Shown: positions 35,539 to 63,179 of the stretch, piece by piece
Position numbering within the stretch: the stretch's first letter is position 1
Layout: the number at the start of each line of letters is the position of its first letter
Source: Heterostelium album PN500
Taxonomy: Eukaryota > Evosea > Eumycetozoa > Acytosteliales > Acytosteliaceae
Direction: 5' to 3'
Assembly (NCBI RefSeq): GCF_000004825.1
Contig: NW_008805070.1
Coordinates: 1,488,001-1,552,000 of the forward strand
DNA: 64,000 nucleotides
Notes under the pieces: model-generated
What the model saw: the letters and a program-made list of their open reading frames with translations, nothing else
Told to the model about the DNA's origin: nothing
Databases searched by the model: none
Made by a program: the position numbers and the translations under genes

Positions 35539-38500
35539 ATGAACCATACAAAATTTGTATTTATATTTATAACAATTTTATATGTATTTTGTGAAAATGT
35601 TAATTCGCTCGAAGGTAAAACTAGTTATTATAGATTTATTGATTGAAAATGATTAATATTTATAAATCTTTTTTTTTATATAGTTTTAAAATTAGAGTTT
35701 TTAAGTGATGGTCAAGTTTATGTAAATAAAGATACAGGGTATTGTCAACTAAAGTTGACATTCAAAGTAGATCCCTATGGGTGTTCTTCATCTGTAAACA
35801 TCTATCCAAGAAATAGTGCTTTGCAATCGACAGATTATTTTGGCGTTGATAATCTATACCAATATTTTACCAATACCTATTTATATCCTACTGGTCAATA
35901 TCCTATGTTGTTTGATTTGAATTGTACTGGCTTTGCAAATGAGTACACTAATATGACCCAGATATTTTCATGTTACGGTAAATAATTGATTATTAGATCA
36001 TTTCATCAACTAATTTTCTTAATTGACACTAATTATTCTTCTTTTTTAATAATCTTATTTTTAGATGTACCAACAATAGGTGTAGTAAAGCTATCACCAT
36101 TTGTCGAAACTTTCGCGAAAACATTTACAACATATCAAGCAGTAGCTTTCCTACCACAGTTAAAATTCTATCTACCTGCACTCAATTGTAATGCTATATG
36201 CTATAAATGTTCAATAACATCAACCTATTCTTTAACAACGGGATCATATTTTACTGTTTCAATAATCCCATTGCCAGGAAATAATAATTGTTATAACATT
36301 CTCTCATTGTCAATTCTGATTGGCGATGATGTTATATACTCTATCGATATAGAGAATAATTTCTTTACAAGTAAATATATATGTTTATTTATTAACAAAC
36401 CTTTATTAACATGAATATAAACCTTAAAATTAAAATCTAACTAGATTCTTTACCAACGGTAATCAATAAAAATACAACATATCCAAGTGTTAATAAACCA
36501 CCATTCGCTGCTTATATATCCAACATTCCAATATGGAACTCTGTCGATCTTGTCAATCCAAGTCCATTCCATATTACTAGGATCTTAACTAAAGATATTC
36601 CTTTATATCCTGTTCAAGGAAACTCAAGTTTTGCTACATATCTTTCACCTTATCTACCAAGTTCACCAGGAACAATCAATATTATGTCAAAGGTTTTAAA
36701 CAAAGAAACAACTTTGCCATCTATTCAATATAATTTTAGTTTAGGTAAATATTAATATACTGCTAAATACTCTTAAGAAAAATAATATTCTAATTTTTCA
36801 ATTCTTTTAGTTGATACCAATACATTGTATCCACTATCAGAATGTAATTATGGCTATATATTTGGTTTTACTGTCTATGGAACCGAAAAAAGACAAACAA
36901 CTAATCAACTGAACACTTATATTAGTTGGTACGTTCCAGATGGTAGCTCAGCTCCAAAATTATTTTCAAAATTCAAGTATCCCTATGGATATCGTAATGG
37001 AACCATTGATAATGCCTCATTCGTAGTTTCCGTACTGACAGGAAATATAACGAATTATGCAACTGCATTATATTATACTAATTATCAAATATTTCCAACT
37101 ACTCCTCAAGGTAAATATTATAAATATAATTTACGAAAAGAAATATACATTAATAAATATTATATAGGATCACCACTACAGTTTAGATTAAGCGGTTTAT
37201 CAATAACACCCTTTGGAACCTATTCTTTCTATATTCAAATTGGTGTGAATGAACCTCAATATGGAATTTACAAGATTCAAATTGGTAGTTGCACTCTAAA
37301 TGAAAAGGATTTGGCATCTGGAGATATATTCAAAGGTTACTATGAAAAAGTGTGTAGATATGATTTTATCGATGGTATTGCTCAAGATCTAGTAATTGAA
37401 ATCTATGGTAGATCAATGGAAATGTCTTCAATTCAACCAAATACTGTTGTACCGTTTTTAGGTTCCTATTTAAACAAAACAACAGTACAATGTAATTAGA
37501 ATATATATAATATAATTTTAATTTATTAATCAATTGTTTTACTCTAGTCAATGTAGGATTGAATGATATTGGATATGTTGGATTTTCAAAAAATAATGTA
37601 GATGTTACCAATTTATCAGTTTGGAATTATTTCCTTTTCAATTTAACAACCAACAATAGATTAGATTATAAACCGATTTTGGAGATCTTCAATCAAGATT
37701 TCAATGGTAACAAGAAACAATTCACAGGTCAATGGAATTCAACACTAGAGCTGTATGTCATTCCATTTTTGATTCCAATGAATTCTTTCGAAGGTTTGGT
37801 TCCATATCGATTACTCTCCCGTTTACCAATCAGTAATGCAGAATTTTATTCAAAGTTTAGAGAGTCATCACAATTATATTTACAATCAAAGAGTAAGTAT
37901 TTTCATCAAAAAAAAACTATATTAAACAAAAAACTAATATTATTATTATTTTATTAAAAATTAGATGCTGATTTACTTGGTCCAATGGTTACAGGTTTAA
38001 CATATTATTCTCAGAACTCTACAATAGGATGGGAAATTACCATTGAGGATAAAATTAATGGATTTAAAGAAGGTTACATATGTATATCTTCATTTTATCA
38101 ACCTTCTTGTATGGTTTCAAAGATTCCATTTAATAGTCCAACGATATTAATGAGTGGTGATATGTATGTTGGAAAATATAGTTTTAGGATATCAATACCT
38201 TATGTTGTCGCAGATAACTTTACAATATCGATTTATGCAGTGGATAATGGTGGAAATATTGCGACATCTATCATTGACCGAGAGATATCTATGTTTCAAG
38301 GATTAAAGAAACAATTCATCTATACAGATCCATTTATGAAAATCTATAATACAGATATCGGAAAGAATATGACAATTATTACAAATCCAGAAGGTACTAG
38401 TAAGTATTTTTTATTGTTTCAATATATAAATTGAAAATTTTTTAACTTTATATATCTTCCTTTCAACTAATAAAGCAAGGGAATTTAATCCACCAAGATT

Positions 38501-40320
38501 TGCCAGTTTTGGTTTAACAAATGAAGCTGTGGATGTTGGATTCCAGAATTCTACCAACCAGTTTATATTTGAAATAGTTGATGATTCTGGATTTAATTAT
38601 TTTCATCTACCAACCGTCTATGTGATTTCTTTGTATCAAGATATAATTGAATTTCCAGTAGATCTTATAGAAGGAAATTCAACATATTGCAAAATGTACA
38701 GTAATATTAGTTTACCGTATGGATTTGGTTCCTCTGAATTCTTTATTGCTGTATATGGATTATCCGATATCTATTATAATCTTTATGGATATGCAGGAGT
38801 AGAAGCATCCGGTTTTTTTAGAAACTTTACAAAAAGTAAAAAAAACATATAAAAAAATGTTTTAAGTTATTTTATATTAACTTTTTTTTATTATGTAGCG
38901 CCTTATTTAGAAAGTTATGAACCGATTTCAAGAGAAGGTGGAATGTTAACAGTATATGGATATCAGTTTGGTTCAAATTCGAGTCTACTCTCTTTTACAT
39001 TAACAAATGATACTATGACTTATACCATTTCAGCAACTTACAAACCGATAGTTACAAACAGCTATTTAATCATCTCCATACCATCTTTTGGCAACTCGTC
39101 TTTTTACAATTTGACAATGTATAAAAACCCATATATATCAAATCTATTAACAATATATCCATTAGAATCTTACTATGAACCAATAGTAATACCAACAATA
39201 AAACCAACGCAAACACCAACAACCACACCACCAAAGCCATGTCCAGGAAATCCAACATGCAATGGAAATGGAAATTGTGTAAACTCTGAATGTAAATGTT
39301 TTAAAAACTTCTTTGGTCCAGATTGTTCATCACGTATGTAAATCTATTATTTTATATAACTATTATTATTAGAATTTCATATTAATATTATTTTGATTAT
39401 TTATAGAATTAATTCCATCACCTCCACCAAATGTAAATCCTTCTACACCAGGTACAAATACAACGGTGATCACTCCAAATGATAATACATTAATATCAGA
39501 GTTATCGATTGATTCTTTGAGAGAATTGAATGATATTGGAAATGTTGTTGCAGAATACAAGTTATCAAATTATTCATGGAACTTTGAAAATCTAACAAAA
39601 GTAAACGATCCAGATTTCATTGAATATCGATATTCAACATTAATTAAAAACACAACACAATTCAACATTACCATTCAATGGTTCTTGAATGAATTCAATT
39701 ATTCATTTGCCGGTGATAACTACACAATGTCAAAATCATCATTAAAATACTCGATATCAATATCAACTTATGAATTCTTGACGAATCTCAATCAACTCCA
39801 AGTTATCATGTCAGCAACACTCATTGGTGCAAATGATGATTGTTCATCAAAATCATTTGGAACAACATCGACATCCGACGGTAAAGATCAACAATTACAA
39901 TGGATCAAACTCAAAGTTGGCTATGAAAGTCTTTACGGTCGATTCATTGAGAAAGCTGTTGTCGATGATGATGCAATGATTGTGATAAACCGAGTGCTTG
40001 ACGATCAATATCAACCTATTTCAACAACATCAACAACACAATCATTCATTGGAATTGACATTCCACATTTCAGTCGATCGGTTCTCATTGATCCTGATTT
40101 CTCAATACTTGTAGATAATACACCTGCTTCCGACGATCCAAATTCAAAATGTAACAGTAAATCATCAGGATTAAGTAAATATCAAATCATAGGTATTGCT
40201 GTTGGCGCTGCTGTCATTGCCATAGCCATAACTGGTGCAACAGTTTTTTTCATCATTAAAAAGAAGAAACAAGCCAAAGAAATTAACAAGTTGAATATGA
40301 AAATGGAAAAATTTAAATAA
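35539..40320 (+). CDS. ComC-like EGF/TIG type I membrane protein, tandem copy 1
   Basis: Eleven exons: 35539-35614, 35684-35977, 36065-36370, 36445-36744, 36811-37110, 37168-37491, 37548-37892, 37965-38399, 38476-38835, 38899-39333 and 39407-40320, giving 1362 residues. It has a signal peptide (exon 1), a long beta-rich ectodomain with many NxS/T sites, and a TIG-like unit in exon 10 (YLESYEPISREGGMLTVYGY). Exon 10 also has a P/T hinge and an EGF-like module with six cysteines (CPGNPTCNGNGNCVNSECKC...C). The last exon has a ComC-type supersandwich domain (ISELSIDSLRELN...FAGDNYTMSKSSLKYSI), one transmembrane helix (IIGIAVGAAVIAIAI) and a 25-residue K-rich tail. Every internal exon has a length divisible by three with phase-1 introns. 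ComC/Tgr-type proteins of D. discoideum act in cell contact and development; the same here is inference. Confidence 0.9.
39239..40230. repeat. gene-conversion tract, partner at 44555-45546
   Basis: The 992 bases from the EGF module to the middle of the transmembrane helix match 44555-45546 with no gap. I count 19 differences; the intron (39334-39406) differs at one base, and only one coding difference changes an amino acid (N to T in the EGF module). Identity falls off sharply at both ends. Confidence 0.85.
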
Positions 40321-40706
40321 AGAGAAAAAACACAAATATCTTTCACCCTTATCAAAAGCCAAACCCTTGGGGTTCACCAAAAAAAATTTTCGGATCGATC
40401 TTAAAAAAAAAAAAAAAAAAAAATTAATAATTTTTTTGCGTGATCAATTTTTGATCAAATGGGTTTCACAAAAAAAAACTTCCCATCTTCTTAATTCGGA
40501 ATGCAAGCCCCGATATTTTTTTTAATGTTATTTGTGGTAAGAAAAGAAAAGAAAAGAAAAAGTATATATCTAAAGATATTTTAATAAAATATCAAAAAAA
40601 TAAAAAAACCATTTTAAACTTTTAGAATGATTTAATAAAGATTCATAGGATACTTAAATAATATTAATATTTAGATTCTATTTTTTTTTTTATCTTTTTT
40701 TGCAAT
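40321..40706. other. spacer between the tandem ComC-like genes
   Basis: 386 bases with an A run near 40404-40423 beside GATCGATC and TGATCA palindromes, and AAAAG repeats near 40541-40560. It must contain the 3' end of copy 1 and the promoter of copy 2. It shows no obvious relation to the sequence upstream of copy 1. Confidence 0.5.
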
Positions 40707-43700
40707 ATGTATAAAAATTATTTATTTTTTAATTTTTCTTTATTTTTTTATATTTTTATTTGTTTTGTAAAAGTAGACTCATTAGATAGTAAGATAATTT
40801 TTTATTTATTCTAAACTTAACTAGTTGTTCTAATTTTTAAATAAAGTTCTTAGTTATGAATTTATTAGTGAGAATCCCACTTATTTTAATGCTTTAACTA
40901 GTTCATGCCAAACAAAGATTGCCTTTAAAATTGATCCTGCTAGATGTACATCACCAATAAACGTGGTTATTAATAATGGAAATTATATATCTCAAGATTC
41001 AATAGTAGTTGACAATCAATATCAATACCATTATTATACATTTGCCTATAATGTTGGTCAATCTATCATGGATTTCATGTTCAATTGCACAGGAGGTGGA
41101 CAATATTATCTTCAAAACTCTGATAATAAAATTAAATGTTTAAGTAAGTTAATTAAAAAAAAAAAACAAAATCATTTAAAATTATTAACTTTTGTAATTT
41201 TTTTGGGACTTTTTTTTTTGATCATTTTTTTTTAGATGTACCAAATTTTAGTATTACTAGTATATCAGCATGGCAACAAACATTTAACTTGGGATTTCAA
41301 AGCTATGAGAGTGTATTTGATGTTCCAGAGTTGAATTATACTTTACTCTCTTTAGTTTGTGATGCGAGAGCATTTGAATGCACAGCTACACCCAGATATT
41401 CAAAGTCGAAAGGCTATTTCAGTTTCATTCTCACGATTGTACCATTCCCAGGTCAACTTGATTATAATAGTGACACTCTTACCATTTCAGTTGGTCCAGA
41501 TGTTAAGTTCACACAACCACTAGATAATATATTCTTTTCACCAACAGGTAAGTTAACTTACATAAAAAAATCTTAAAAAAGAACCATGTTAATTAGTTTC
41601 AAAATAATTAATAATATTATTTTATTTTTTTTGGAAAATCATCATCATCATCATCTTAGATGGAGTAATACAAGTACTAAACAATCAATCATATCCAAAT
41701 CTTTTGAGACCTACTTTTAACTCTTACTTACCGAGTGTACCTGTTTGGTTCTCAGTTGATCTGCTCAACCCTGGACCGTTCTATGCTACTAAAACACCGA
41801 TTCAAGATACTGCGTTGTACCCTGTCAAAGGAAACAAAAAGTCAGCAACCTTAATCACTGCTATTGTACCGAAACTAGGAAGTACCTATTTCTATTTCAG
41901 AGCTTGTAATGCAACTATGACCACTGTAGAACCTTTGATATCAATGTTTTTTAGTAAATACATAAATTACCATATTTATAATAATATCATTTTAGCTAAC
42001 TTTTTTTGTTTTCTTTACATAGATGATCAAATTTATAATGATGGAGCAGCAACACCAAATGGAATGTATATAAATAATGGTGATAGTAAATTTGCACTAT
42101 ATTTTATCAAAAGATTGATACCGAATCAAATGTCAACCTATGTTGATTGGTATGAAACTGGTCAATTATTACCACACACGCTTTATAGTAAATACAACTT
42201 CCCCTTTGGATATATGAATGGAACTGCACAACTTTCATTTTCAAAGAGTGTTCATCTAATTGGAAATCTAACAAACTACGGTACTGGTGCTTTCTATGTA
42301 GATTATCATCCAATTCCATATGGTTTTGTAGCAAGTAAATACATATTTATTATTAATACTTTAACTTTAATTTAAAAATATTAATATTATATCATTTATT
42401 ATTTTATCTGTAAATTTATAGATCCAACAATGCTTAAAGTAGATAATATAACTTTAACACCATTTGGAACCTATTCTTTCTTTATTCAAATTGGACTGAG
42501 TGAACCGCTCAATGGTGTCTACAAGATTCAAATTGGAAGTTGCAATCTTTTCGATAAAGATTTGGTATTTGGAAATGCATTCAATGGAATCTATGAGAAA
42601 GTTTGTCGATATGATTTGGTTGATGGTGTTGCTCAGGATCTAGTAATAGAAATATATAGTAAATCAATGGCATTATTATCATTTACACCGAATTCATACA
42701 TACCAACATTAGGTAGCTTTTTACCACCATACCAATTCCAATGTTTGTATTAATTATCAACGAATATAATTATTAGTTACTAATTATTTATTATATTTCA
42801 CAGTTAATATACCTTTAAATGAATTTTCAATGGTTGGATTTGCAAATGAAGTTGTCAATGTAACTAATTTGTCGGTTGTAAATTATTTTTATTTCAATTT
42901 GACTTCTACCAACAATAGATTAGATTATAAACCGATTTTGGAGATCTTCAATGAAGATTTCAATGGAAACAAGAAACAATTCACAGGTCAATGGAATTCG
43001 ACACTCCAACTCTATGTCATTCCATTTTTGATTCCAATGAATTCTTTCGAAGGTTTGGTTCCATACCGTTTACTAACTCAACCACCAATAAGAAATTCAC
43101 AATTCTGTGCAAAGTTTGGTGAATCATCACAATTAACTTTACAATCTGAGAGTATGTATAGAATAATTAATAATAATTATTATTATTAATTAGAACTTTT
43201 ATTAATATATATTTAACAACAAACTTTTAAATATTTAGATGCCGATTTACTTGGTCCAATTGTAACCTCTATTAAAACATTCTATCAAGCAAATGTTATT
43301 GGATGGGAGATTACGATAGAAGATGATGTCAATGGTTTCTCAAATGGATATCTTAATGTCACTTCGAATTATCACTCTGGTCCGATTGCTCCTGGACCTA
43401 TTTATTTCAGAGTAACTGATAGAGTTGGAGGTGACCAATACGTGGGTATCTACATTCTACGTATATCAATACCTCATAATGTTGCCGAGAACTATACACT
43501 ATCTCTATATGCAGTGGATAATGGTGGAAATATTGCTACTTCTTTTGCCGACAGAGAAATCCAAGGATTTAAAAAACCTAATCAAATCGATTTCGTCTAT
43601 ACAGATCCATTCATGAAAATCTACGGTACTGAAATGGAAAAGAATTTGACAATCATTACCAATCCAAGAAGTAAGTATCAATAATATCCATTTAATAATA

Positions 43701-45648
43701 AATTAATCACTTATTAATAATATTATTATTATTATTAGCTGAGAAAGAAGGTGTAGCACCCAAATTAGACCGATTTTCTGTTACAAGACCAATAGTGGAT
43801 GTTGGTGTCAGCAATATATCGACTACGATTTTATATCAGATTTCAGATAATACGAATATCGATACCGATCATGCGCCTACCATTTATGTCTCATCAATGT
43901 ACGAGGCCACTGTTGAATTCCAATCGGCTCTTCTCTCGTCCAACTCTACACACGCCTCATTTTCCTGTCAGATTATACTTCCCTATGGTTTTGGTTCCAC
44001 AGATTTCTATATTTCAATCTATGGAATATCCGATATCTATTATAATCTAATAGGATACACTCCATTAGAATTATCTGCTTCAAGTTTTTCTTTTGGTTTA
44101 AAAAGACAATTTTCAAAGAGTAATTATTTTTTTAATTTCAATATAATGTTAAAAAAAAAATAATACTAATTATTCTATTATTAAAAATAATAGCTTATCC
44201 ATATTTAGAAAGTTATGAACCGATTTCTAAAGATGGTGGACAATTAACTATTTATGGATATCAATTCGGTACTGATTTGAATCAGATTTCTTTCAAATTA
44301 TCACCTCCCAATGGCGAAGTTATGATAAATCTAACAAGATCTTCGGTTTCATTGTTGGGAAATTCATATATAATTATTAATTTCCCATCGTTTGGTAATT
44401 TCTATAGTCTTGAACTGGTTCTAATGAAATCGACATTCAGTTCCAATGTCTTGACAATTTATCCTACTTCGCCACTGGAGCTACCGAATGTCACACCCAC
44501 TCCAACACCAACAAGCACTACAACACAACCCCCAGTTACACCCACACCAAAACAATGTCCAGGAAATCCAACATGCACTGGAAATGGAAATTGTGTAAAC
44601 TCTGAATGTAAATGTTTTAAAAACTTCTTTGGTCCAGATTGTTCATCACGTATGTAAATCTATTATTTTATATAACTATTATTATTAGAATTTCATATTA
44701 ATATTATTATGATTATTTATAGAATTAATTCCATCACCTCCACCAAATGTAAATCCTTCTACACCAGGTACAAATACAACAGTGATCACTCCAAATGATA
44801 ATACTCTGATATCAGAGCTATCTATTGATTCTTTGAGAGAATTGAATGATATTGGAAATGTTGTTGCAGAATACAAGTTATCGAATTATTCATGGAACTT
44901 TGAAAATCTAACAAAAGTAAACGACCCAGATTTCATTGAATATCGATATTCAACATTAATTAAAAACACAACACAATTCAACATTACCATTCAATGGTTC
45001 TTGAATGAATTCAATTATTCATTTGCCGGTGATAACTACACAATGTCGAAATCATCATTAAAATACTCGATTTCCATTTCAACTTATGAATTCTTGACGA
45101 ATCTCAATCAACTCCAAGTTATCATGTCAGCAACACTCATTGGTGCAAATGATGATTGTTCATCGAAATCATTTGGAACAACATCGACATCCGACGGTAA
45201 AGATCAACAATTACAATGGATCAAACTTAAAGTTGGATATGAAAGTCTTTACGGTCGATTCATTGAGAAAGCTGTTGTCGATGATGATGCAATGATTGTG
45301 ATAAACCGAGTGCTTGACGATCAATATCAACCTATTTCAACAACATCAACAACACAATCATTCATTGGAATTGACATTCCACATTTCAGCCGATCGGTTC
45401 TTATTGATCCTGATTTCTCAATACTTGTAGATAATACACCTGCTTCCGACGATCCAAATTCAAAATGTAACAGTAAATCATCAGGATTAAGTAAATATCA
45501 AATCATAGGTATTGCTGTTGGCGCTGCTGTCATTGCCATAGCCATAGCAGGAACCATCACATACATAACACTTAAAAACAAAAGACAAGCCAAATCAATA
45601 GAAGAACTAAATATGAAGATGCAGAAATTAAAATCCGATAAAACATAA
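40707..45648 (+). CDS. ComC-like EGF/TIG type I membrane protein, tandem copy 2
   Basis: Eleven exons: 40707-40788, 40847-41143, 41236-41547, 41660-41953, 42023-42334, 42422-42742, 42804-43151, 43239-43670, 43739-44119, 44194-44649 and 44723-45648, giving 1386 residues. Exon number, order and phases equal copy 1, and each exon aligns with its partner (for example GSFAT-type exon 4, FGTYSFxIQIG exon 6, the identical NRLDYKPILEIFN of exon 7). Exon 6 ends at an unusual GTTTGT donor, fixed by the frame. Ectodomain exons 2-5 and 8-9 are diverged. From the EGF module through the transmembrane helix the two genes are about 98% identical in DNA. The cytosolic tail is different again (KRQAKSIEELNMKMQKLKSDKT). 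Confidence 0.9.
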
Positions 45649-51880: not shown

Positions 51881-54800
51881 ATGCAAATGAAACAACCAAC
51901 AACTTTGTTGTTGATATTAAGTTGTTGTATTTTGTTCACGTGCATTTTGGGTTATGATCCAATTTACAATTCAGAAAACAATCATTACTACCAGTTGATT
52001 TCAGGTAGTCAGAAATATACATTTACAGAAGCTGTCAATCTTCAATCACAATATCAATATAATGGTTTGATTGGGTAACTATTCTTTTGAAAAAAGTTTG
52101 TCATATTAAATACGTTCATTTGATTATTAATAATATCATATCATCACAATGTGACTGTTCATTCTCTTTTCTTTTTTTTTTTTTTTAAAATAATAGGAAT
52201 CTTTTAACAATTAATGATGATAAAGAGTTACAATTTATTATCGAAAAAGTAATAGTTGATTCAACTATACCGAGTAAGGAAATTTGGCTTTCATTGGCAC
52301 CGCTAGACACAGAGAATAGCCGCTGGGGATGGACAACAGGAATCTACCGTAATCAAACATTATACTCTAGCTTTCCAGCTAGATGCTACCAATATTGTGC
52401 AGACTGGAGAGTATCAACCAATCAGTCCACTCCACATATCTGGTTCAATGCTACCACACTCCAACAGGCACGTCAATGGCAACACACCACACCATCTGAT
52501 CAAAAGCTGGTTATCATCGAATATGAAAGCACGATTGCTCCAACCATAGCAAGAGCCAATCCAAATTCAACTTTTATTACCATTGGCAATCTAAAAGTAG
52601 CCGATAAATGGGCAGTCAGAGTTAATGATGTCAATTGTAAATCGCTGGTTCCAACGGTAGTCAACCAAACCACAAGTCTTCAGTGCGGGTTAGAGACTCT
52701 TAAAACCTATGAGGGAATCTTTAATATCTCCATTGCCGACGGAACATTGAATTCCTATTTTGTATACAGATTTAATTCGCCGTGGATCGTAGCCATCAAA
52801 GGCAATTCCAACGATCTATCGGCCACCATCTACGGAGCCAACTTTCAACAATCACTGATATCACCAACGCCAGCAACCATCCTTGTAAATAGCATACCAT
52901 GTTCAATCATCAATTATAATTTCACATCCACTCCACAGACAATTCTTTTGAATTCCGTAAAATCACAATTATTCACATCAATACAAATCACCTACAATTC
53001 CAACACCGCCATTCCCACTCGATATTACATCAACCAATATGAATACCCTATTTTTGAACAAACCACCGGGTTATTCTACCGTTACTTTGGTAACCCAACA
53101 ACCTTTGAACAATCATTGCTATTTGCTTCACAGGATCAGCTGCTCTACAGCCAAGGTCACTTGGCAAATATAAATACAACCGAGTTGTATCAGTTTGTAC
53201 ATAACCAATTCGCCAATGGCAATAGAAGTTATAAAGTTTGGGCAGATCTTCTCTATATCAATAGTCAACTGCTTTATAATAACCAGAGTTATACAACGCA
53301 ATTGACAAATGCCACTGGTTTGCTAACAGGTAGATTCTACTTTAACGGAGCGACACAAGGTTGTATAGGAATAGAATCCACCACCACCGATACCTATCCA
53401 TTGGTTATTGTATATGGATTGCAAAATCCAGTTGTAGATAGCAGTATACCGAGAATTATAGTACCAACATTGGCGGGTGGCACACCATATTCCGTTCATA
53501 TGAAATCTAATTTCCTTTGGTTCAATTATTTCATCACCTACACATTCAACGGCAAAACCTATAACACTGCCACTTCCAACATCAAAGCCAAAACCATAGA
53601 TATTATAGCACCACCAGGTTCAGGAGTAAATCAACCATTAGACATTTCAATTGTAAATTCAGATAAGAAATCATTATCATATACAATTCATACATTTTTA
53701 GATTATCCAGGTAATTATTGAATTATTTATTATAATAATTATTATTTATATTAATTATATTTTATTATCTTTTCTATTTTTTAGCACCTATTATTAGTGG
53801 TATTAAATGTCCAAATGATTATATTACTATCATGGGTAGTAATTTCGCTGAACCAATTCAGATAAATAATTTGAATTGTAATTATATCAAGTTGTTTTCA
53901 AGTGGTGAGCTGTATTGTCAGTTAAAAGAATCACCTAATGGTGTTAATTTTTCAATTACTGCAAATGGACAACAATCAAATAGTTATACTCAGAGCAACC
54001 AGTATGCTTGGATACAAACAGTTTCTCCACAGTACATACCTTTTGACGGATCGATTTTAACTATTGTTGGTGACAATCTTGGTAGCCAAGCCAGCTTGCC
54101 AATCGTAACACTAGAAAGAGATACTACTATCATTTCAACTTGCTCCAATGTAACATTCCTTGTTGATCAAAAATCATTTACATGTATAGCCGATCCTTCT
54201 GATATAGAAGGACAATATTCAGTTAAATATCAACAAATTAATGCAATCCAAAGAGTTGAAGCTGTTGTTATTTATACAAGTAAATATTTATTATTTAAAA
54301 TTGATTTTGATTTATTACTAATTCAATTAAATATTAAAATAGATGCCACAATTAATACTACTTGGTTACAAAATCAATTTATTGTTACTTTTAGTGGATC
54401 TTTTTTAGATTTATATAAAAAAGATTGGAAGTTAAAGATTGGAAGTGGTGTACCTGGTAATATTAATTGTACTAATTGGGAATGTACTTTTGACATGGTT
54501 GAGGGTTGTACCAGTGGTTTGGTATCGATATTCAGTAGAACCGGAAGATCTTTATTTCAGACTATAATGGTTTGGACACCATTGATATTCAATATAACAC
54601 CGGCTGTTATTAATCCACTTTCAGAAGATCCAATTATCGTAAATGGGCTGTTCTTCCATAAAGGCGTACAAGTTAGATTCTTTAATTATTCTCTACCAAA
54701 TGTTACAATCTCAGAGAGTCAGATAGTGATTCATTCAGTACCAATGTCCACTGGAAATATCTCTGTTAGCATTGTCGATTTGTCCAACCCAGACGTACCA

Positions 54801-56872
54801 ATTCCATCGAATCGAATCAATGTTGTCTATCCAAAGCCAGTGGTAACCAAAGTCACTACCACTGCACCTGATATCCAATATCGCCAAAACATCACCATCG
54901 TTGGACAATTCCTAGGTGTAGCAGACCGATCTCTCTACCCAGGATTGAATACACCGGTACTAACATACAATGGTTTGTCATCTGGTGAGTTTACTACCAC
55001 CTATACATCATTCGACAAGATTGTTGCATGGATTCCATATGATTCTAGATCCGGTGAATTTAATATTACCATCGATGGACAAACTTCATTTTCCTATCCT
55101 GTTAAAGTGTGTAAGTAAAAAAAAAAACAAATCATTTAATAATTAATTTTCATTTATATTTACTAATTAGTAATTTCACTTTAGATCCATTTATTCAATC
55201 TATTGAAAATAGACCAGCAACAACAGGATCAATGATAACTATAATAGGTTATTATTTAGCACCTTATAGTTGGACTGGTCAACAATCATTATTCGTTTCC
55301 ATCGAGAATTTGAATTGTACAAGTTTGAATTTGGCTTATTCCAGTACCGCACCTTATTATCTGGCTTGTAATGCACCACCTGGTAGTGGTAAAAAGACAC
55401 TCTATATCAATAATGGACAAGATACAGTGACTTTTGATATCGTTTACCAATCGCCAACGATTGAATCGACCACTTCCACTCATTTCGGTAGACCGGGTAC
55501 TGTTTCTATTTTCGGAAGCAATTTTGCACCCAACAATGTTGCTGTTACCATCGGTGGTATACCTTGTACCTACCCAAGAGTCAACAGTAATTATGATATG
55601 TTGGAATGTAGATTTGCATCCAATGTTCCTATCAGTCAACTACTACCATACAATAACCAAATACAACTAGATGGAGTAACAACTGGTACATTTTCATTGG
55701 AGAGTAATATAACATTACAAGTTTATGTGGAAATCGATGGTTACAATACGACAGCTCCAACCTTTATCTACAGTGTCCAACCGGATGTTTGCGAGTACCA
55801 ATGTGTCTATGGACAATGTGAAGATGGTCATTGTGTTTGTACTGACGGATATACAGGGTTGGATTGCTCACTTGAAGTTGTTGTTGAAGCTCATTTACCT
55901 AGTCCAGCGCTCAATTCCGTTGATCTCATTTTAGGATTAGCAGAGTTTGCAGTTGGATTTAATATCTCTATAATTGGTCTACGTGAAGTGTCACCAACTA
56001 TGACCACCATCAATCAAGTTGAATTTAGTAGTATTTCAAATTGGACTGTTAATTCTATTACAAATGTATATGTAGAAAATAACTATAACAACAACAACAA
56101 TAATAATAGTGGTAGTAGTGACGATCAAGAAACAATCAATTTTCCAAAACCAAATGTTAAACTCTTTCAATATAAAACCAGTTTGGAAATTGTAGATATC
56201 ACAGTAAATCTGACCGTATTCCTTCAGGATGGAGATTATAATTTTGCAGGTGACATTTTTACAGTTGGAAAGAACTCTGTGAAATATCAAATCGAAATTA
56301 ATAATTGGAAGTTTGTTGATCCTCTAAATACACTACAGCTTTTGGTTCTAACCAAATCCACTGCGAAAGAAGAAACATGCATTGCAACAGCCAACAGTTA
56401 CAAAAATCAAAAAGGATCGCTAAGAGAAGTAGAGATTGTTGATTACAATGGTATTTTACATGCATACTATTCCGATCGTATATTGGTTGATGACCGGTTA
56501 GAGTACAGTCAAGTGATAGTTCTCGAAGATGGAACCACTCCAACTAATGAAGATCTTCACTATAACCGTAGTGCAGGACTTTTGACTGCCATTTGTATCC
56601 CACACTTTGAAAACTCTGCAATTATCGATCCCAATTACCAGGTACTCATTGTTATACCGGATCAAAACTGTCTGGAACAAATCAGAAGATGGCGTAAACC
56701 TCTCATTATTACTCTGGTCATTCTTGGTCTGATATCGATCCTCATAACCATATTGATAGTACTCTATCAGCGATATAAATATCATATGAAGATTCTCTAT
56801 ATTCGACTCATTGAATATCACATGGAATGCTATCAACCAATGATAGAACTATTGGATTTTAGTGATGATTAA
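51881..56872 (+). CDS. C-type lectin-like / TIG-repeat / EGF membrane receptor with ComC-type domain
   Basis: Five exons, 51881-52074, 52197-53710, 53785-54279, 54343-55110 and 55185-56872, give 1552 residues. Order: signal peptide (TLLLILSCCILFTCILG); a C-type lectin-like module (YYQLISGSQKYTFTEAVNLQ...NLLTINDDKELQFI), apparently followed by a second, weaker one around residue 405-480 (RYFGNPTTFEQSLLFASQDQ); several IPT/TIG units (APIISGIKCPNDYITIMGSNF; PAVINPLSEDPIIVNGLFF; STHFGRPGTVSIFGSNFAP). An EGF module follows (CEYQCVYGQCEDGHCVCTDG...C), then a ComC-type supersandwich domain (FAGDIFTVGKNSVKYQIEI), one transmembrane helix (LIITLVILGLISILITILIV) and a short tail. The last half shares its architecture with the ComC-like pair upstream. 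A role in sugar binding and cell-cell recognition is inferred; the canonical lectin calcium motifs are not obvious. Confidence 0.88.
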
Positions 56873-60590: not shown

Positions 60591-61885
60591 TTACTTTATT
60601 TCAACTTTAAATAAAGATAAATTTTATAACTTATTATATACTCATTTTTAAACTTAAATGTTGTAAAGTACAAAAGATATTAAATATTATAATTCATTCT
60701 TTATTCTTTATTTAACTTTATTACATTATCACAGTGAGACAACATATGACATATCCATTGAAATTAATTATACATATAACTCCTTATAGTAATAGAGTAT
60801 TCACCGTGTTGAAAATTAATAATATTGAATAATATTAATCTATTGTTTGCAACCATTGCTTTCTAATCGGGAAATTAATAAATAACAAGAATTTTTTTTA
60901 AATCTTCAATTCACCACACTTTTTGGCTTTGGATGTAATTGAATGTGTTTCTTACAAATTTTAAAGATATATATTTTTTAGTAGTAGATCAATTTTACTT
61001 GTTTTGTGATTATCAGAATTTGATTTCATATTTTTTCTATTCTCTTGCAGTTCTCAATTTATCTATATCTGGATGAATATATCTGGATGAATATCTAGAT
61101 AATGGTGTATTTCATTGTAGGAATTAAATTGGAAAATACATTAATCTAATATATTGTCCAAAAAAAAGAAATAATTATTTTGAATATCCATTTTTCAAAT
61201 ACCAATAATATTCAAATAATAAGTATAATTAAATACATTAAATACATTAAAAACAAAGTTAATAAATATTGAAAAGATTTAAGTTTTAACTTTATTTGAT
61301 CTTTAATGTATATAGATAATAACATTTATCTTTATATGATTTTAATTGTAGAATACTTTAACAATTAAGATAAAGTTAATTGAATCTTTCTGAGTATTGC
61401 TATCGATTTCTCAACCTCATGTTTCAGACGTTCATTTATAGATTTGGACAATATTTTATAACACCGTCAATCACTTCGATTTGTAACGATAATACCACTT
61501 TTTCAAAATTCAAATTATTTTTCATTTTTAAAAAACTCAACTTCTATTCAAAAAACGAACAATCAACTTTACTATTCAAGTTCTTACACTAACTCTGAAT
61601 AGGTATGATCAATTTATATTTAATAAACATAAAAACAAGTTCTTACACTAACTCTGAATAGTCTTTAAATTATTTGAGTTGATTATTAATAAATAAATAG
61701 ACTGATACCTATTTATTAAAGATTTGATAATATTTACTTTTTTTTTTTTTTTTTTAAGAAGTAAAAATTGATTTATTAAGTAATATATTGGGGATGGTGT
61801 AAACCATCGAATTTTTCTTTTTTTTTTTTTTGATAATATTTACTACCGAACGCATGCGGACATAATTTTTTAAGGAAAAAGTCCT
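60591..61885. other. spacer with a 26-bp direct repeat and a small coding relic
   Basis: A+T-rich. A 26-base direct repeat lies at 61577-61602 and 61636-61661 (core TTCTTACACTAACTCTGAAT). Short TATCTGGATGAATA repeats occur near 61066-61095. On the minus strand about 61525-61380 a coding-like fragment reads NNLNFEKVVLSLQIEVIDGV, then, after a frame change, NERLKHEVEKSIAILRKI, which is probably a gene relic. T tracts precede the tRNA. Confidence 0.5.
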
Positions 61886-61966
61886 ACCAGAGGTGGGATT
61901 CGAACCCACGAACCAAATGGATGAGATCTTAAGTCACACTGCTTTAACCAGCTTACATACCCTGGT
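61886..61966 (-). tRNA. tRNA-Leu (anticodon UAA)
   Basis: 81 bases, no intron. The acceptor stem ACCAGGG pairs with CTCTGGT with one G-T wobble. D stem TGT/GCA has the TGGTTAAA loop. The anticodon stem TGTGA/TCTCA has one mismatch and loop CTTAAGA, giving TAA at positions 34-36. A 12-base variable arm (TCCATTTGGTTC) makes it class II, and the T arm is GTGGG-TTCGAAT-CCCAC, which includes the B box GGTTCGAAT. All features agree with leucine. The T tract near 61809-61831 lies downstream in the direction of transcription and can terminate RNA polymerase III. Confidence 0.95.
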
Positions 61967-63179
61967 AATATGATGAAATCTTTTTTTTTTACTATTAATT
62001 TTATTTCGCAGTTTTTTTTTCCAATAAAAACTTAGTGGATTTTACTATTATCAACAAAGTTTCTGTCCTCATGCCCATGTTTTTTAGTGCAAACTCTGGA
62101 TTCACTGAACATATTTAAATATCCACCCACAACATAAGATAGAATATCTTAATTAATTTTCTTTTGTACAGTAAATAAATTTTTACTGTATTTGTCTTTT
62201 TCTTTGTGATTTTTATTTTTTCCCAAACCCCAAATTTAATTGTGTAATTCCTTATTGGTTTAAAATTTAAACAAATTATTTAAAATAGGAAAAGAAAATC
62301 AAATCAAAATATTTTTTTAAATAATTATAAAAATTTAGATTTATTTGAAAATATTTAAAAATGTTCTTAATATATTTGAATGTCATCTAAGAAGAGTCAC
62401 TTTATCAAATTGATTCCAAATTTTGACGATATACACTTTTAAATGATACATCTTTGATACTACTAGAATATTGTTTAATCCCTCCTGTGTATCGTTATTC
62501 GCTATGTCTAAAAATTTTTGAATTTCACTTCTGTTCTCTAATAAAATGTTAAAATAATTATTTTAAAAAATTTTATTTATTTTAATTTTTTTATACTCTT
62601 CATAACTCATCGTATTTCCTTCACATAGTATTCATATAGTTTAAATAATGCCACTTTGGGATAGACCCCTTGATAGTGAGTGGATCTTTTACTTGACATT
62701 CAGAATTGACACTTTCACGGCTGAGATTTCTTTTTTTTCCAAATTCCTAAAACTGTAAGGATTAACAATTACAGTAAAAATACTATTTTTTTGCCACTTA
62801 CTATCAAACTAATAGATAGATATATATTTATTTGATCATTTTATTTTATTTTTTAAATTAATATATATTTAGAAAGATCATAATTCAAACTTGTACTAAA
62901 CTAAAACAAAGCTGATCCAAATGATTTGTCAAACTTCCTAATATCTTTGATAGTAAAGGATATGATAGATTTACAAATATATTATTTTTATTATTATCTT
63001 TCATTTATAGGATTTCAAAAAAAAATAAAAGGAGAAACAAATCAGTTTTTAGATTTTTTTTTAACTCATTTTTTTTTTTTAAAAATTTATTTCATTTGTA
63101 AAATTAAAGATTATGAATTTGGTATGTCCAAATTAATATTAATTAAAATAAAATTTTTTTTTTAATAATTTTATTTTTA
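61967..63179. other. spacer with a possible small coding exon on the minus strand
   Basis: A+T-rich. On the minus strand 62537-62380 is open with protein-like composition (SEIQKFLDIANNDTQEGLNN, then MYHLKVYIVKIWNQFDKVTL) and is preceded by a good acceptor (TTTTATTAG), but no in-frame upstream exon could be joined. About 62720-62620 also looks coding in part. I see no evidence for a tRNA-targeted retroelement beside the tRNA. Confidence 0.4.

What the first reader, a model, noticed from the sequence alone, without database searches (positions are those of the whole stretch)
35539..45648. Tandem ComC-like receptor pair with homogenised 3' ends and diverged ectodomains
Two adjacent 11-exon genes match over 992 bp (39239-40230 and 44555-45546) with no gap and about 19 differences, including a nearly identical intron, while upstream exons differ strongly and the cytosolic tails differ again. 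This pattern indicates recent gene conversion of the membrane-proximal part beside fast ectodomain change. In D. discoideum, linked TIG-type membrane proteins (TgrB1/TgrC1) serve kin recognition, so this pair is a fair candidate for a recognition system of another lineage.
Basis: partly seen in the sequence, partly recalled or inferred. Interest (0 to 1): 0.8.

Follow-up and report, generated by a model that had tools for sequence, protein, structure and literature searches.

The report
Amoeba surface-receptor genes sharing converted stalks
Two neighbouring social-amoeba genes make surface proteins with different outer parts on an almost identical membrane-side stalk, because a block of DNA was copied from one gene into the other; other tandem groups of the same large gene family show a similar pattern.

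Summary
Genes A (35539-40320) and B (40707-45648) are intact 11-exon genes whose 992-bp 3' block differs at 19 sites, one of them in the intron. A third copy, C, on another contig decides what happened. B-C synonymous divergence is even (0.56 ectodomain, 0.54 block), while A-B falls from 1.07 to 0.09 and A-C from 1.32 to 0.55. So A received its EGF + ComC_SSD + outer-TM block from B. A 147-bp exon 7 patch apparently went the other way. The pair is one of 24 tandem clusters among at least 146 ComC_SSD loci. In the 33 loci I could read, six of six clusters with diverged upstream regions show homogenisation in the same module, five clearly and one weakly. "Fast ectodomain change" is not supported: ectodomain dN/dS is about 0.36-0.43, and synonymous sites are just as diverged. 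It is not a TgrB1/TgrC1 pair by the features tested. The closest known pattern is regional gene conversion in clustered protocadherins. I read it as lineage-expanded adhesion/recognition receptors with variable heads on locally homogenised stalks. Whether the shared stalk is a cis-assembly module, or merely the only part still similar enough to convert, is open.

The parts
35539..40320 (+). Gene A: 11 exons, 1362 aa. Signal peptide (by eye), ectodomain with DUF7743, DUF7035, DUF7034, a TIG-like stretch below cut-off, Pro/Thr hinge, EGF (DUF7949), ComC_SSD, TM (by eye), short basic tail
   Evidence: spliced model; Pfam; exon coordinates; phases
40707..45648 (+). Gene B: 11 exons, 1386 aa, same domain order
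39239..40230 (+). Conversion tract in A (recipient): EGF, intron 10, ComC_SSD, outer part of TM
   Evidence: 19 of 992 mismatches to B; A-B dS 0.09 against 1.07 upstream; A-C dS 0.55, like B-C 0.54
44555..45546 (+). Conversion tract in B (donor)
   Evidence: B-C dS does not change across it (0.56 to 0.54, p 0.81)
37658..37804 (+). Exon 7 patch in A, apparent donor of a second conversion, older by its A-B dS (0.20 against 0.09)
   Evidence: 49 codons: A-B dS 0.20, A-C 1.04, B-C 1.07; 0 of 2000 shuffles reach the score
42917..43063 (+). Exon 7 patch in B, apparent recipient (the A to B direction is inferred from B-C rising to 1.07)
   Evidence: end coordinate
40231..40320 (+). Inner TM and cytosolic tail of A, outside the tract
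   Evidence: tail site patterns 23 BC, 5 AB, 5 AC
45547..45648 (+). Inner TM and cytosolic tail of B, resembling C rather than A
   Evidence: B-C 76%, A-B 48% amino-acid identity
52189..56872 (+). Downstream TIG-type gene (TIG and ComC_SSD above cut-off; Ig_TgrO1 and EGF below) with the same kind of membrane-proximal module; not homogenised with A/B (27% identity over the exon 11 part). Exon structure not modelled; the extent, and whether ORF 52189-53721 (no Pfam match) belongs to it, are approximate

Best explanation
A and B are cell-surface adhesion or recognition proteins of a large dictyostelid family: a multi-domain head on an EGF + ComC_SSD + TM stalk. SHOWN: after A and B had long diverged, about 1 kb of B's membrane-proximal coding region, intron included, was copied into A by gene conversion. 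A smaller, older patch in exon 7 was copied too, apparently from A to B. The protein encoded by the 3' block has since been held almost invariant (17 synonymous, 1 non-synonymous change). SHOWN in a sample of 33 loci: other tandem clusters of the family have homogenised stretches in the same module, with diverged heads and mostly diverged tails. INFERRED: tandem arrangement plus purifying selection keeps the stalk similar enough to keep converting, while heads and tails have passed the similarity limit. The result is sets of neighbouring receptors with different heads on a common stalk. INFERRED and unsure: the common stalk serves shared trafficking or cis-association, the heads give trans specificity, and the different short tails couple to different partners. 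My probabilities: conversion 0.97; family-wide pattern 0.9; surface adhesion/recognition role 0.75; stalk as a cis module 0.3; kin recognition by this pair 0.1.
For: Synonymous divergence for ectodomain, tract, tail: B-C 0.56, 0.54, 0.59; A-B 1.07, 0.09, saturated; A-C 1.32, 0.55, saturated. Tract against ectodomain: p 1e-38 (A-B), 6e-9 (A-C), 0.81 (B-C). Site patterns: ectodomain 786 BC, 266 AB, 202 AC; tract 122 AB, 8 BC, 6 AC; tail 23 BC, 5 AB, 5 AC. The tract is bounded on both sides, which an unequal crossover would not leave. Constraint: 1:17 non-synonymous:synonymous in the A-B tract against 55:77 for B-C, Fisher p 0.003. Family: 150 scored matches merge to 146 ComC_SSD loci; 24 clusters hold 68 of them; 43 of 44 neighbours are on the same strand. 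Of 107 pairs with diverged upstream codons, SSD pS < 0.40 in 17 of 21 linked and 8 of 86 unlinked. The C5 pair is the clearest parallel: SSD dS 0.02, three upstream pieces 1.20-1.52, tail 0.40. Receptor anatomy.
Against: Rooted trees with distant outgroups do not settle the topology conflict: for the ectodomain, A+B held together is not rejected (p-AU 0.26); for the SSD, B+C held together is not rejected (p-AU 0.135). So direction rests on synonymous distances and on the tract being bounded. GC3 is not raised in the A/B tract (A 0.215 ectodomain, 0.225 tract; B 0.240, 0.232). All 8 unlinked exceptions join C27 genes to C38/C7 genes, so either homogenisation is not purely local or those clusters are related. 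In the C9 cluster at 1.04-1.06 Mb, 1 of 5 pairs passes the 0.40 line. The homogenised stretch does not always span the whole module: it is the C-terminal part of the SSD in C15 and C9, the N-terminal part in C27. Tails are not always more diverged: C31, C9 L035/L036 and L024/L033 have tails 0.89-1.00 alike. Pairs are not independent: 10 of the 21 linked ones come from one cluster. Nothing here tests binding, expression or a cis module.
Confidence: 0.6

Rival explanations
1. Neutral conversion island. Purifying selection on the SSD keeps its DNA alike, so only this part still exceeds the identity needed for conversion; the shared stalk has no special function as a shared part.
For: The conserved part of exon 7 was converted too, as expected if similarity alone decides. 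B-C constraint is stronger in the stalk than in the ectodomain (non-synonymous:synonymous 55:77 against 425:266, p 3e-5). Ectodomain windows show no clear positive selection. The extent of homogenisation differs between clusters.
Against: The A-B stalk is more constrained than the B-C stalk (1:17 against 55:77, p 0.003; small counts), which simple conversion does not predict. Tails diverge between young whole-gene copies in C38 (amino-acid identity 0.67-0.86, SSD 0.99-1.00), though not in C31 or C9 L035/L036.
Confidence: 0.5
2. A and B are recent duplicates, and A's head and tail were later replaced by those of another paralogue, so the stalk is the original part.
For: Rooted trees reject neither topology; all introns are phase 1, which favours exon shuffling.
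Against: It needs replacements on both sides of the block.
Confidence: 0.1
3. A/B is a TgrB1/TgrC1-like kin-recognition pair of this lineage.
For: Adjacent large surface proteins of a dictyostelid; a TIG-type gene with ComC_SSD lies nearby; another Polysphondylium species shows kin discrimination (PMC3041686, abstract).
Against: No TIG domain above cut-off; same-strand, not divergent; homogenised stalks; one of 24 clusters; no polymorphism data.
Confidence: 0.1
4. Assembly artefact (collapsed or copied reads).
For: Near-identity over 992 bp in adjacent genes.
Against: 19 scattered mismatches of 992, 17 of them synonymous; different flanks; a similar pattern in other clusters. No reads were examined.
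Confidence: 0.01

Closest known systems
Clustered protocadherins of vertebrates (regional gene conversion)
   Same: Tandem surface proteins; the 3' membrane-proximal part is homogenised by conversion among neighbours while the 5' recognition domains stay diverse. In fugu the 3' regions are over 99% identical and the 5' ends differ (PMC1852091, passages). EC5-EC6 make promiscuous cis dimers and EC1-EC4 give trans specificity (PMC7811963, passages).
   Different: Unrelated proteins and organism. No shared constant exons; each gene is complete. GC3 is not raised in the A/B tract. No cis or trans binding is known. Cytosolic tails here mostly differ gene by gene.
Tgr (tiger) family, TgrB1/TgrC1 of Dictyostelium discoideum
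   Same: Large dictyostelid family of TM proteins with Ig/E-set heads, duplication and recombination; GARD found 12 and 10 recombination sites within tgrB1 and tgrC1 (PMC12324515, section read). The window's downstream gene combines TIG domains with ComC_SSD.
   Different: A and B lack a TIG match above cut-off and are same-strand. The pattern here is homogenisation of the stalk among paralogues, not recombination across the gene length.
ComC-type proteins (Pfam PF22933 ComC_SSD)
   Same: Share ComC_SSD and an EGF-like domain above Pfam cut-offs. comC is in the 2016 table of developmentally essential D. discoideum genes with limited conservation, as 'Has EGF domains' with the group 4 code (PMC4931340, passages).
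   Different: The D. discoideum ComC sequence was not compared here, so orthology is not claimed.

Membership tests
ComC_SSD family (PF22933) | ComC_SSD profile match above the gathering score (24 bits) | tested here: met
   69.8 bits (A) and 67.7 bits (B)
ComC_SSD family (PF22933) | EGF-like domain before the SSD | tested here: met
   DUF7949 29.3 and 28.1 bits, cut-off 27; that DUF7949 is EGF-like is my reading of its overlap with EGF_2 (19.8 and 20.4 bits, cut-off 22.1)
Tgr family | TIG/IPT domains in the ectodomain | tested here: not met
   None listed at E <= 1 for the full proteins. Exon 10 peptides alone: A 15.3 bits, cut-off 20.9; B and C none
TgrB1/TgrC1 allorecognition pair | Divergently transcribed pair | tested here: not met
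   A and B are both on the + strand; the divergent order of tgrB1/tgrC1 is recalled and fits 'diverging gene pairs' in PMC12324515
TgrB1/TgrC1 allorecognition pair | Extreme polymorphism within the species, matching alleles needed | not testable with these tools
   One genome only
TgrB1/TgrC1 allorecognition pair | Heterophilic binding between partners | not testable with these tools
   No binding data; structure models were too poor to use (mean pLDDT 33.7 and 40.7)
Protocadherin-like mode of evolution | Localised 3' homogenisation among tandem paralogues, beyond what amino-acid constraint explains | tested here: met
   dS falls in the stalk
Protocadherin-like mode of evolution | Raised GC3 in converted regions (fugu) | tested here: inconclusive
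   Not raised in A (0.215 to 0.225) or B (0.240 to 0.232), slightly in unconverted C (0.228 to 0.275). In the homogenised C5 pair SSD 0.24 against upstream ORFs 0.12-0.18; other loci mixed
Protocadherin-like mode of evolution | Diversifying selection on the recognition domains | tested here: not met
   3 of 134 B-C windows with pN/pS > 1, maximum 1.04

The most novel reading that the evidence does not exclude
A social-amoeba lineage has independently evolved a protocadherin-like recognition system: over a hundred surface receptors, about half of them in tandem arrays, whose stalks are kept alike within an array by repeated gene conversion so that neighbours can assemble in cis, while their heads provide a diverse trans-recognition code and their tails diverge to separate outputs. 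This could serve cell-type sorting or self-recognition in a lineage outside group 4, the group to which the 2016 comparison confines tgrB1.
Probability: 0.12. Interest if true: 0.88.

Novelty: new variant of a known kind. Interest (0 to 1): 0.55.

Why it matters
It shows, with direction and boundaries for one pair, that dictyostelid surface-receptor arrays evolve by module: the membrane-proximal stalk is overwritten among neighbours while heads and mostly tails stay apart. That resembles vertebrate protocadherin clusters, in an unrelated family and a distant lineage. It gives a testable prediction (stalks of one array associate with each other and not with those of another) and a practical warning: trees built on the SSD or on whole genes of this family can mislead within arrays. 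It also offers candidate recognition genes, though it does not single out this pair.

Tried and rejected
Assembly duplicate: rejected (19 scattered mismatches, different flanks). Synonymous constraint on the SSD as the cause of low dS: rejected, because B-C dS is the same in stalk and ectodomain and 500 unlinked pairs have a median SSD pS of 0.72. Positive selection on heads: not found. Rooted topology conflict by AU test: inconclusive. GC3 signature: not seen in A/B, mixed elsewhere. AlphaFold2 on exon 11 and on exon 10 (window sequences only, two rows each): mean pLDDT 33.7 and 40.7, so no fold search was run. PDB sequence search with A: one chain at E 0.22, not relevant. The first family-wide scripts read minus-strand loci in the wrong orientation; their rows for those loci were discarded and redone.

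Rows dropped: the SSD test covers 33 of the 146 loci (the 30 best-scoring matches plus A, B and C). Of their 528 pairs, 117 had at least 100 aligned upstream codons (25 linked, 92 unlinked) and 107 of those had upstream pS >= 0.45 (21 linked, 86 unlinked); the other 10 were too similar upstream. Thirty more loci centred on DUF7035 were held; five served as outgroups.

Prior reports: 12 of 42 papers listed; 0 papers with dictyostelid + gene conversion + tandem + adhesion; 12 of 24 listed. None of the listed titles or opened passages reports this pattern. PMC5288501 uses 'concerted evolution' for the correlated distances of tgrB1 and tgrC1, and has no 'conversion' (passages). PMC8129030 has 'gene conversion' for Ig and VLR genes and for possible diversification in general (passages). 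The library holds open-licence papers only and the lists were capped, so this is no proof of novelty.
Full report
WHERE. The window is G000:C9:1488001-1552000 of a 32.9-Mb, 39-contig genome. Gene content and size fit a dictyostelid; from memory they fit Polysphondylium (Heterostelium) pallidum best. I did not prove the species.

THE OBSERVATION. Reading both genes with GT-AG introns gives uninterrupted 11-exon frames: A 35539-40320, 1362 aa, and B 40707-45648, 1386 aa. The models rest on sequence alone; for A intron 8 two splice choices score equally. In A, B and C all ten introns are phase 1 and exons 2-10 are multiples of three. Similarity breaks off on the left at the Pro/Thr hinge just before the EGF domain and on the right inside the TM segment. 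Pfam gives, in order, DUF7743, DUF7035, DUF7034, DUF7949 (EGF-like) and ComC_SSD, all above cut-off.

WHICH PART MOVED. A third gene, C, lies on contig C25 at 702770-707638, with the same 11 exons and 1383 aa (coordinates). Synonymous divergence (NG86) for ectodomain, tract and tail is 0.56, 0.54, 0.59 for B-C; 1.07, 0.09, saturated for A-B; 1.32, 0.55, saturated for A-C. B and C diverge evenly between these parts, while A becomes B-like within the tract and is A-like again in the tail. The drop is significant for A-B (1e-38) and A-C (6e-9), and absent for B-C (0.81). Site patterns agree: 786 BC, 266 AB and 202 AC in the ectodomain; 122 AB, 8 BC and 6 AC in the tract; 23 BC, 5 AB and 5 AC in the tail. 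The simplest account is one conversion with B as donor and A as recipient. Rooted trees with distant outgroups do not decide between the topologies (p-AU 0.26 and 0.135), so the direction rests on distances and on the tract having two ends.

A SECOND TRACT. The best A-B-like segment within the ectodomain is in exon 7 (A 37658-37804, B 42917-43063): 21 AB against 3 AC and 3 BC sites, and 0 of 2000 shuffles reach its score. There A-B dS is 0.20 while A-C is 1.04 and B-C 1.07. B-C has risen to the A-C level, so this patch appears to have gone from A to B. The patch is small (49 codons) and its direction is less sure.

SELECTION. Since the conversion, the tract has gathered 17 synonymous and 1 non-synonymous change, against about 77 and 55 between B and C; Fisher p 0.003. 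Ectodomains have dN/dS of about 0.43 (A-B) and 0.36 (B-C); 3 of 134 B-C windows exceed pN/pS 1, the highest 1.04. The heads differ because they are old, not because of demonstrable positive selection.

THE FAMILY. The genome holds 150 scored ComC_SSD matches, of 197 candidates, which merge to 146 loci; 68 lie in 24 clusters with gaps of at most 8 kb, and 43 of 44 neighbours share a strand. These are lower bounds, as only the best candidates are scored. DUF7034 lies within 3 kb upstream of 61 of 146. The SSD test covers 33 loci: the 30 best-scoring plus A, B and C. Pairs with diverged upstream codons (pS >= 0.45) number 107. SSD pS is below 0.40 in 17 of 21 linked pairs and 8 of 86 unlinked ones; the median of upstream minus SSD pS is 0.34 against -0.03. 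Pairs within a cluster are not independent (10 of the 21 are from C27); by cluster the direction is the same in six of six (C5, C7, C9 at 1.04 Mb, C9 A/B, C15, C27), weakest in C9 at 1.04 Mb, where 1 of 5 pairs is below 0.40. The C5 pair is the sharpest parallel: SSD dS 0.02, EGF piece 0.03, three pieces further upstream 1.20-1.52, tail 0.40. The homogenised stretch is not the same length everywhere: about the whole module in A/B and C5, much of the SSD in C7, its C-terminal part in C15 and C9, its N-terminal part in C27. C38, C31 and one C9 pair are young duplicates along the length read. All 8 unlinked exceptions pair C27 genes with genes of C38 or C7, which local conversion alone does not explain unless those clusters are related.

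MECHANISM. Bounded tracts in tandem genes point to gene conversion rather than unequal crossing-over. Why the stalk? Two readings fit. Either the stalk is merely the part that selection keeps similar enough to convert, or identity of the stalk within an array is itself useful, as for protocadherin EC5-EC6 in cis assembly (PMC7811963, passages). The excess constraint in A-B and the tail divergence between young C38 copies lean to function, but weakly; tails of the young C31 and C9 L035/L036 copies are alike.

KNOWN WORK. Fugu protocadherins show a 5'-diverse, 3'-homogenised pattern, with raised GC3 (PMC1852091, passages); GC3 is not raised in the A/B tract. Tgr genes recombine along their length in group 4 species (PMC12324515: abstract, introduction, first part of Results, tgrBC section and Discussion read). 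A 2016 comparison counts in P. pallidum 110 proteins under IPT/TIG, 25 under EGF-like and 1 under both, and gives comC and tgrB1 the group 4 code and tgrC1 the D. discoideum code among genes with limited conservation (PMC4931340, passages). Searches for dictyostelid gene conversion in such genes found no prior report among the papers listed, within an open-licence library. Kin discrimination is reported for P. violaceum (PMC3041686, abstract).

VERDICT.

Noticed in passing
window 52189-56872 (+): TIG-type gene with ComC_SSD, and Ig_TgrO1 and EGF matches below cut-off: the same kind of membrane-proximal module as A/B under a TIG head.
   Followed up: partly
G000:C7:742079-742658: Two overlapping ComC_SSD pieces in different frames, one with two stops inside, at the 5' end of the C7 array: perhaps a decayed copy.
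   Followed up: no
L010, L011, L020, L021: SSD GC3 of 0.50-0.57 against 0.20-0.43 in upstream ORFs; high third-position GC confined to the SSD in a few genes, unexplained.
   Followed up: no
L022-L024 (C38) and L033 (C7:713859): Near-identical genes on different contigs (SSD dS 0.07-0.09 to L033); tails of L022 and L023 differ from L033 (0.67 alike) while L024 and L033 tails are 0.89 alike.
   Followed up: no
window 61884-61967 (-): tRNA-Leu gene (anticodon taa).
   Followed up: no
window 7098-50950: Neighbours by Pfam: kelch protein, Hid1/Dymeclin, UbiA prenyltransferase, Utp21, a 3'-5' exonuclease-domain ORF and an ankyrin ORF; 10 of 27 long ORFs were scanned.
   Followed up: no
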